64,000 bases of DNA. Source: Sialis fuliginosa. Lineage: Eukaryota > Arthropoda > Insecta > Megaloptera > Sialidae. Both the position numbers and the translations under genes were made by a program. The stretch lies in the NCBI GenBank assembly GCA_961205875.1, contig OY540810.1:33976001-34040000 (forward strand), read 5' to 3'. Shown here in pieces: positions 50,214 to 50,388 of the stretch (positions within the stretch are counted from its first letter, which is position 1; each line of letters starts with the position of its first letter). Under the pieces are notes generated by a model. It did not search any database. It was not told the origin of the DNA and was given only the letters and a program-made list of their open reading frames with translations.

Positions 50214-50388
50214 AAAAATATACACCTTAACCACAATAAAATAATGTCACTCGACGCGTGTTTCGACTTCAGAAGAAATCCTATTGCAGATTATTAGTCT
50301 GGAACTGTCAGGCTCCTGATGAGGACTTCTTGTGAATTCGAAACATGTGTCGAATGACATTGTTTTATTGTGGTTAAGTGTATATTTT
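50214..50388. repeat. Imperfect foldback element carrying a hammerhead-like core
   Basis: The left arm (50214-50281) is the near-exact reverse complement of the right arm (50320-50388): both contain AAATATACAC..TTAACCACAATAAAA and the GTCRYTCGAC motif. They differ at roughly a dozen positions and are separated by about 38 bp of non-repeated spacer. It adjoins another small inverted-repeat element (50032-50200). The right arm plus spacer contains the ribozyme-like core described separately. No coding capacity. Confidence 0.8.
50306..50359 (+). ncRNA. Candidate type I hammerhead ribozyme
   Basis: The conserved hammerhead strands are present in order: CUGAUGA (50316-50322), GAAA (50340-50343) and a GUC cleavage triplet (50349-50351). 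Stem II closes with the canonical G50323-C50339 pair but is imperfect. Stem III is minimal: A50343-U50350, C50344-G50349 and possibly A50345-U50348. Stem I has two inner pairs (U50314-A50353, C50315-G50352), an asymmetric internal loop (GGC/A), then five pairs (50306-50310 with 50355-50359). Predicted cleavage is after C50351. A very short stem III with open stem I is the layout known for hammerheads in Penelope-like elements. Activity is unproven and stem II may be decayed. Confidence 0.5.

What the first reader, a model, noticed from the sequence alone, without database searches (positions are those of the whole stretch)
50306..50359. Candidate hammerhead ribozyme in a foldback element 4 kb upstream of jing
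Seen: CUGAUGA, GAAA and a GUC triplet in order, with stem I and a minimal stem III supported by base pairs, G-C closing stem II, and predicted cleavage after 50351. Known: small type I hammerheads with tiny stem III are a hallmark of Penelope-like retroelements and related repeats in animals. Inferred: this foldback is a relic or non-autonomous derivative of such an element. If it lies in a jing intron, self-cleavage of nascent pre-mRNA is conceivable. The stem II mismatches may mean it is inactive.
Basis: partly seen in the sequence, partly recalled or inferred. Interest (0 to 1): 0.75.

Follow-up and report, generated by a model that had tools for sequence, protein, structure and literature searches.

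The report
Decayed Penelope hammerhead palindrome in jing
A short self-cutting RNA motif seen next to an insect developmental gene is real but worn: it is one old copy of a palindromic repeat made from the front end of a Penelope-type jumping gene that still has relatives in the same genome.

Summary
In detail: at 50306-50359 (+) lies a type I hammerhead core (CUGAUGA, GAAA, GUC). The motif alone is weak; Rfam Hammerhead_1 gives 12.0 bits against a cut-off of 34. The genome settles it. The foldback belongs to a repeat family (933 first-look candidates, 40 scored). In 39 fetched loci plus the window, 65 of 76 arms keep the core and 25 of 36 foldbacks keep it on both strands. Each of 35 fetched foldbacks has a tail on one arm only; 27 of 33 have duplications of 9 nt or more. 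L056 joins the same leader and tail to reverse transcriptase, so the parent is Penelope-like. Arms stop about 20 nt before CUGAUGA, at a predicted transcript start; 0 of 72 pass 24 nt. I infer head-to-head double copies of the 5' leader RNA. The window copy is old: a MITE splits it, two hammerhead stem pairs are broken, and its hairpin outcompetes the ribozyme fold. Cleavage of jing pre-mRNA is unlikely.

The parts
50306..50359 (+). Hammerhead region: outer stem I UGUCA/UGACA, inner stem I UC/GA, core, imperfect stem II, tiny stem III
50316..50322 (+). CUGAUGA core
50340..50351 (+). GAAA, stem III (self-complementary ACAUGUGU) and GUC; predicted cleavage after 50351
50296..50396 (+). Right arm: copy of the Penelope leader from the predicted transcript start (A of AGTCTGG) to TTTAGTTTAA
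   Evidence: aligned to the leader of L056 (the local alignment runs on weakly to 50410)
50204..50289 (-). Left arm body: inverted second copy of the leader, truncated or decayed inside the 5' half of its hammerhead
50253..50282 (-). Degraded second hammerhead: stem II GAUUUC/GAAGUC, GAAA, ACACGCGU, GUC kept; CUGAUGA lost
49989..50028 (-). One-sided tail, the outer end of the left arm, cut off by the MITE
   Evidence: aligned to the L056 tail; tail on one arm only in 35 of 35 fetched foldbacks
50029..50203 (.). MITE-like element nested in the left arm, ~20-nt inverted ends, TTA duplication (50026-50028 and 50204-50206)
49980..49989 (.). Possible target-site duplication, left half (AAAACAACAA; right half AAAATAACAA at 50402-50411; 9 of 10 identical, A-rich, by eye; exact search finds only 5 nt)
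54492..56199 (+). Internal coding exon of the jing/AEBP2 gene, preceded by a splice acceptor
   Evidence: the next exon matches AEBP2
48441..48475 (+). Candidate upstream coding exon end (ATGATCAG|GTGCGT) that joins in frame to the exon at 54492; would make the foldback intronic, sense
   Evidence: inference; no homologue, no transcript

Best explanation
The foldback is a decayed copy of a repeat made of two head-to-head copies of the 5' leader (pseudo-LTR) of a Penelope-like element. Shown: most leader copies read carry a minimal type I hammerhead core; arms are inverted; one arm alone has the tail; most insertions are flanked by duplications of 9-14 nt; the same leader and tail follow reverse transcriptase in the same genome. 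Inferred: the element's enzyme copied a leader RNA starting at the TCAGT initiator onto both cut strands of a target, and the two cDNA ends (both the RNA 5' end) were joined, giving a palindrome with the ribozyme on both strands. In place, the window copy is probably inert: the long hairpin hides the ribozyme and its stems have decayed. (The confidence is for the identity as Penelope leader palindrome; the two-strand step is rated in the section on the most novel reading.)
For: Genome family: 933 candidates, 40 scored, 82 matches on both strands. Core intact in 65 of 76 arms, in at least one arm of 40 of 40 loci, in both arms of 25 of 36 foldbacks; exact family hammerhead in 31 of 40 loci. The family hammerhead, tested on L049, forms stem I 4+4 bp, stem II 6 of 6, stem III 2 bp, palindrome ACACGUGU; -10.9 kcal/mol against -3.4 for the window copy. 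Tail on exactly one arm in 35 of 35 fetched foldbacks. Duplications of 9 nt or more in 27 of 33, against 1.1% of mismatched flank pairs. L056: RVT_1 E 2.6e-12, then a C-terminal frame, then leader and tail. Foldback arms reach at most 24 nt upstream of CUGAUGA (47 of 72 reach 17-24), at TCAGTC with a TATA run starting 31 nt before its A (counted by hand). Penelope inverted pLTRs, head-to-head junctions, an optional tail and TSDs are described in PMC3846280 (passages); cutting and extension of both strands, a protein-assisted hammerhead and unprocessed template in PMC11167929 (passages).
Against: The window copy is below the Rfam cut-off and has no exact duplication longer than 5 nt. 6 of 33 loci lack a duplication of 9 nt. 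Pfam (up to E 10) and NCBIfam (up to E 0.01) did not recognise the C-terminal frame of L056; calling its SYIGQTRR stretch GIY-YIG is by eye from recalled signatures. L056 has no second leader in the 8 kb read; no complete parent was seen. RVT_1 is a general reverse-transcriptase model. The query was the foldback itself and only 40 of 933 candidates were scored, so family make-up and conservation are biased upward. No transcript data: start site and both-strand priming are inferred. ViennaRNA prefers another fold even for the family hammerhead (-18.0).
Confidence: 0.88

Rival explanations
1. Same Penelope-derived palindrome, but made by snap-back self-priming of one cDNA (or on an antisense template), as proposed for Adineta, rather than by priming from both target strands. 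This is a rival to the mechanism, not to the identity.
For: Self-priming with palindromes at the inverted junction is the published proposal (PMC3846280, passages). One arm is often shorter than the other at the centre.
Against: The two outer ends differ (tail or no tail) in 35 of 35 fetched foldbacks; I would expect a snap-back copy to repeat the same end on both sides, unless one end was trimmed.
Confidence: 0.3
2. The hammerhead still works: it cuts jing intron RNA or releases a small RNA.
For: Core intact and on the sense strand of a probable jing intron; stem II pairs 5 of 6 in either of two registers; a Penelope hammerhead can need its protein (PMC11167929, passages).
Against: Two family stem pairs are broken. 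Probability of the 1.1:2.1 pair is at most 4e-5 in the five transcripts tried, and stem I pairs are 0 in the three that include left-arm sequence; outer stem I alone reaches 0.43-0.50 in the other two.
Confidence: 0.05
3. The foldback is an ordinary DNA-transposon MITE and the hammerhead letters are chance.
For: The window has many inverted repeats (24 pairs of 30 nt or more within 400 nt), and a textbook descriptor is met in 67 of 1000 shuffles.
Against: Hammerhead shared across the family, one-sided tail, duplications of 9-14 nt in 27 of 33 loci, and linkage to reverse transcriptase.
Confidence: 0.02

Closest known systems
Penelope-like elements with inverted pseudo-LTRs (PMC3846280, PMC11167929; passages seen)
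   Same: Minimal hammerhead in the leader, head-to-head inverted pseudo-LTRs, optional tail on one of them, target duplications, TATA box and initiator-like word in the pLTR; GIY-YIG-like frame by eye
   Different: Here the unit is the pseudo-LTR pair alone (215-269 bp in 33 measured copies; no coding part) and it recurs at many loci; the arm limit lies at a predicted transcript start
Small hammerhead variants associated with Penelope elements that cleave as dimers (Lunse et al. 2017; title seen in reference lists, paper not held)
   Same: Tiny stem III; the family stem III ACACGUGU is a perfect palindrome, and ACAUGUGU of the window can also self-pair
   Different: Here copies sit in inverted order, so two sense copies are not on one transcript of a foldback
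Non-LTR retrozymes (PMC7229834; first part of the text and passages seen)
   Same: Short, non-coding, type I hammerhead, mobile in animals
   Different: Retrozymes are tandem repeats giving circular RNA; at most one arm per strand was found in each of the 39 loci, most of which are about 1.1 kb long

Membership tests
Type I hammerhead ribozyme | Conserved core CUGANGA...GAAA...UH with G10.1-C11.1 | tested here: met
   core in 65 of 76 arms
Type I hammerhead ribozyme | Stems I, II, III can form | tested here: inconclusive
   Met in the family copy L049; imperfect in the window copy
Type I hammerhead ribozyme | Rfam RF00163 gathering score 34 | tested here: not met
   12.0 bits in the window; 17.7-21.0 in 19 of 20 family copies searched
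Type I hammerhead ribozyme | Self-cleavage | not testable with these tools
   No wet assay
Penelope-like element (derivative) | Reverse transcriptase linked to the same leader | tested here: met
   L056, RVT_1 E 2.6e-12; no Penelope-specific model was at hand
Penelope-like element (derivative) | GIY-YIG endonuclease | tested here: inconclusive
   No Pfam hit up to E 10; motif SYIGQTRR by eye
Penelope-like element (derivative) | Inverted pseudo-LTRs, head to head, tail on one | tested here: met
   35 of 35 fetched foldbacks; window copy by parts
Penelope-like element (derivative) | Target-site duplication | tested here: met
   27 of 33 loci at 9 nt or more; for the window copy only by eye, one mismatch
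Non-LTR retrozyme | Tandem monomers with hammerhead | tested here: not met
   At most one arm per strand in each fetched locus
MITE (DNA transposon) | Symmetric inverted ends, fixed short duplication | tested here: not met
   One-sided tail and duplications of 9-14 nt

The most novel reading that the evidence does not exclude
These palindromes are a genomic record of two-sided target-primed reverse transcription by a Penelope enzyme: both strands of a staggered cut prime on leader RNAs that were not cleaved by their own hammerhead, run to the 5' end, and the two cDNA ends are sealed. That gives a stand-alone, many-copy class of leader hairpins bearing a ribozyme on both strands.
Probability: 0.4. 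Interest if true: 0.72.

Novelty: new variant of a known kind. Interest (0 to 1): 0.55.

Why it matters
How Penelope-like elements insert, and what their hammerheads are for, are open questions (PMC7761336 and PMC11167929, passages). Here many insertions with clear duplications fix three landmarks: two insertion ends (with and without tail) and a 5' limit at a predicted start site. In the copies examined the template still contained the hammerhead, which fits the in vitro finding that cleavage is not needed; copies made from cut RNA would have been missed by the query. Head-to-head copies also put the ribozyme in both strands, inside a hairpin that would mask it and might feed small-RNA pathways (inference).

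Tried and rejected
Rfam as sole judge: rejected, because it scores the family copies below its cut-off too; the many sub-threshold miRNA matches most likely reflect the hairpin. Patterns in viral and prokaryote contigs: six scans gave 0 stretches (viral; prokaryote); two gave 12 and 10 loci, of which by eye only L013 looked like a hammerhead (Rfam 31.6 bits, E 0.0014, under its cut-off); the other 21 were not examined further. A similarity at 43770-43801 showed no hammerhead by eye and was dropped. Pfam scan of six frames of 47-54 kb: no domain. My first reading of the arm ends as the ends of the element was wrong; the tail lies beyond the nested MITE. A shuffle test of the similarity beyond the MITE was not significant (200 of 1000 shuffles reached it); family copies later showed that stretch to be the tail. 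Shared flank words of 7 nt are a poor test of duplication (9.6% of mismatched pairs reach it), so 9 nt was used. Literature: eight searches listed no title or abstract start describing leader-only hammerhead palindromes, but the key papers (msu232/PMC4209133, PMC5785218, PMC5850863, PMC8557442) are not held.

Full report
WHAT IS THERE. The stated letters are at the stated places: CUGAUGA 50316-50322, GAAA 50340-50343, GUC 50349-50351. The stretch lies in a foldback with MFE -98.5 kcal/mol, z -17.7. Judged by motif alone it is weak. A loose pattern is expected 0.35 times per shuffled window; a textbook hammerhead with three stems appears in 67 of 1000 shuffles; a tighter, post hoc descriptor in 1 of 300. 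Rfam reports nothing at its cut-offs and no hammerhead up to E 10 in 401 nt; on 75 nt alone, Hammerhead_1 is first of three listed matches, at 50314-50353, with 12.0 bits against 34 and E 2.5.

THE INVERTED ARM. The left arm, read on the minus strand, is a second copy of the same unit, with GAAA, a near-palindromic stem III and GUC, and a fully paired stem II, but without CUGAUGA. Before any relative was seen I reasoned from the two arms that the ancestor had stem II GACUUC/GAAGUC and stem III ACACGUGU (reasoning not logged in the notebook); the genome copies showed that.

THE GENOME FAMILY. After 13 unanswered tries the own-genome search replied: G000 has 392 Mb in 20 contigs; 933 first-look candidates, 40 scored, 82 matches, because palindromic copies match on both strands. 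I fetched 39 loci (L031-L069). With the window there are 40 loci and 76 arms: 36 foldbacks and 4 single-arm loci (L053-L056). Whole core (CTGATGA, GAAA, GTH) in 65 of 76 arms; at least one such arm in 40 of 40 loci, both in 25 of 36 foldbacks; the exact family hammerhead in at least one arm of 31 of 40 loci. Mean identity to the commonest base is alike in core (0.972), stem II (0.974), stem III (0.984), loop II (0.993) and the downstream arm (0.964), so I see no clear extra constraint after insertion (window left out). These loci were picked by similarity to a query that contains the hammerhead, so conservation is overstated. I gave Rfam 20 of the 39 loci: Hammerhead_1 is listed in 19 of 20 at 17.7 to 21.0 bits, all under 34; L049 alone gives E 0.043. 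In L049 the family hammerhead pairs fully (stem I GCUC/GAGU and UGUU/GACA, stem II 6 of 6, stem III 2 bp): -10.0 kcal/mol, or -10.9 without stem III, though ViennaRNA prefers another fold at -18.0.

ELEMENT ANATOMY. Both arms end near TTTAGTTTAA; one arm alone continues into a tail, GTGACTAGAAACCACAGTTTCTCCGTTTTTCCAGTA in most: 35 of 35 fetched foldbacks by a search for the tail's end with up to 3 mismatches, and the window copy by parts. Of 35 fetched foldbacks, 33 had measurable ends (L063 and L068 dropped), 215-269 bp long. Shared flank words of 7 nt or more occur in 28 and of 9 or more in 27; mismatched flank pairs reach 7 in 9.6% and 9 in 1.1%. So the foldback is what was inserted. The window's tail lies at 49989-50028, cut from its arm by a MITE at 50029-50203 with TTA duplications. 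The window's own duplication is unclear: 5 nt exact, 9 of 10 by eye.

THE PARENT. L056 (re-read as L070) has, on one strand, a frame with reverse transcriptase (RVT_1 E 2.6e-12), a C-terminal frame of 119 aa with SYIGQTRRSINIRFKEH, a short 3' stretch, then the same hammerhead leader and tail. Pfam does not recognise the 119-aa frame, even up to E 10; calling it GIY-YIG is by eye and recall. L054 and L055 share the stretch upstream of the leader and bits of the C-terminal frame; L054 has no tail. No second leader was found in the 8 kb of L070, so this copy is 5'-truncated or solo.

THE 5' LIMIT. Matched without gaps to L056, foldback arms reach at most 24 nt upstream of CUGAUGA: 47 of 72 reach 17-24, 33 of 72 exactly 20 or 21, 0 go further. 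In L054-L056 that point is TCAGTC with a TATA-like run starting 31 nt before its A (counted by hand); TCAGT as the arthropod initiator is recalled knowledge. L053, a single-arm copy, also begins there. The window's right arm begins at this A, 50296. PMC3846280 describes a TATA box and an initiator-like word in a Penelope pLTR, inverted pLTRs, an optional tail on one of them, duplications, and head-to-head junctions with palindromes (passages).

HOW IT MOST LIKELY AROSE. Shown: unit, ends, duplications, limit, parent linkage. Inferred: the RNA began at the initiator, was not cut by its hammerhead, and was copied twice in opposite sense from the two insertion ends, the two cDNA ends meeting at the RNA 5' end. 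Priming from both target strands would explain why the ends differ (tail, no tail); a Penelope enzyme has been seen to cut and extend both strands in vitro, and hammerhead mutants still inserted (PMC11167929, passages). Snap-back self-priming, the older proposal (PMC3846280), is the main rival.

WHAT THE WINDOW COPY DOES. Probably nothing as a ribozyme. Against the leader of L056 its hammerhead has four changes: 50309 turns an outer stem I wobble into a G-C pair, 50337 breaks a stem II pair (while allowing another register with 5 of 6 pairs), 50345 alters the stem III palindrome, 50354 breaks an inner stem I pair (pairings). The hammerhead fold scores -3.4 at best against an MFE of -11.4. In three transcripts that include left-arm sequence the stem I pairs have probability 0; in two without it outer stem I reaches 0.43-0.50 but the pair next to the core at most 4e-5. 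The gene is jing/AEBP2: the next exon matches AEBP2 at E 8.5e-17 and a later one at 8e-6. The exon at 54492 follows a splice acceptor, and a candidate exon ending at 48475 joins it in frame, so the foldback is probably intronic and sense; no transcript was seen.

LIMITS. One genome, unnamed; only 40 of 933 candidates scored; later genome searches (pattern count, endonuclease and RT copies) unanswered. Key hammerhead-Penelope papers could not be read. Novelty is therefore relative to the papers I could search.

Noticed in passing
window 50026-50206: MITE-like element with ~20-nt inverted ends (CCGTGGGTTGCATAAA / TTTATGCAACCCAAGG) and TTA duplication, nested in the foldback; by eye the flank of L058 carries a related sequence.
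   Followed up: partly
window 36638-36840: Perfect 97-nt inverted repeat with a 9-nt loop: very young foldback or assembly artefact.
   Followed up: no
window 28110-28588, 58328-58845, 62071-62550, 23263-23503, 57003-57195: Further long inverted repeats (72-106 nt arms), likely other MITEs or foldbacks.
   Followed up: no
L013 6751-6781 (-): Viral contig with a hammerhead-like motif with tiny stem III; Rfam RAGATH-1-hammerhead 31.6 bits, E 0.0014, below its cut-off of 56.3.
   Followed up: partly
L053 about 2429 (-): Single-arm leader copy without tail that starts at the predicted transcript start: a SINE-like solo leader.
   Followed up: partly
L054 / L072: Penelope copy with a fragment of the C-terminal frame in inverted orientation just upstream of the leader.
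   Followed up: no
L051, L052: Foldbacks with extra repeated words at the centre (for example TTCAGAAGTCTGGACAGTTCCAGAC), perhaps traces of template jumping.
   Followed up: no
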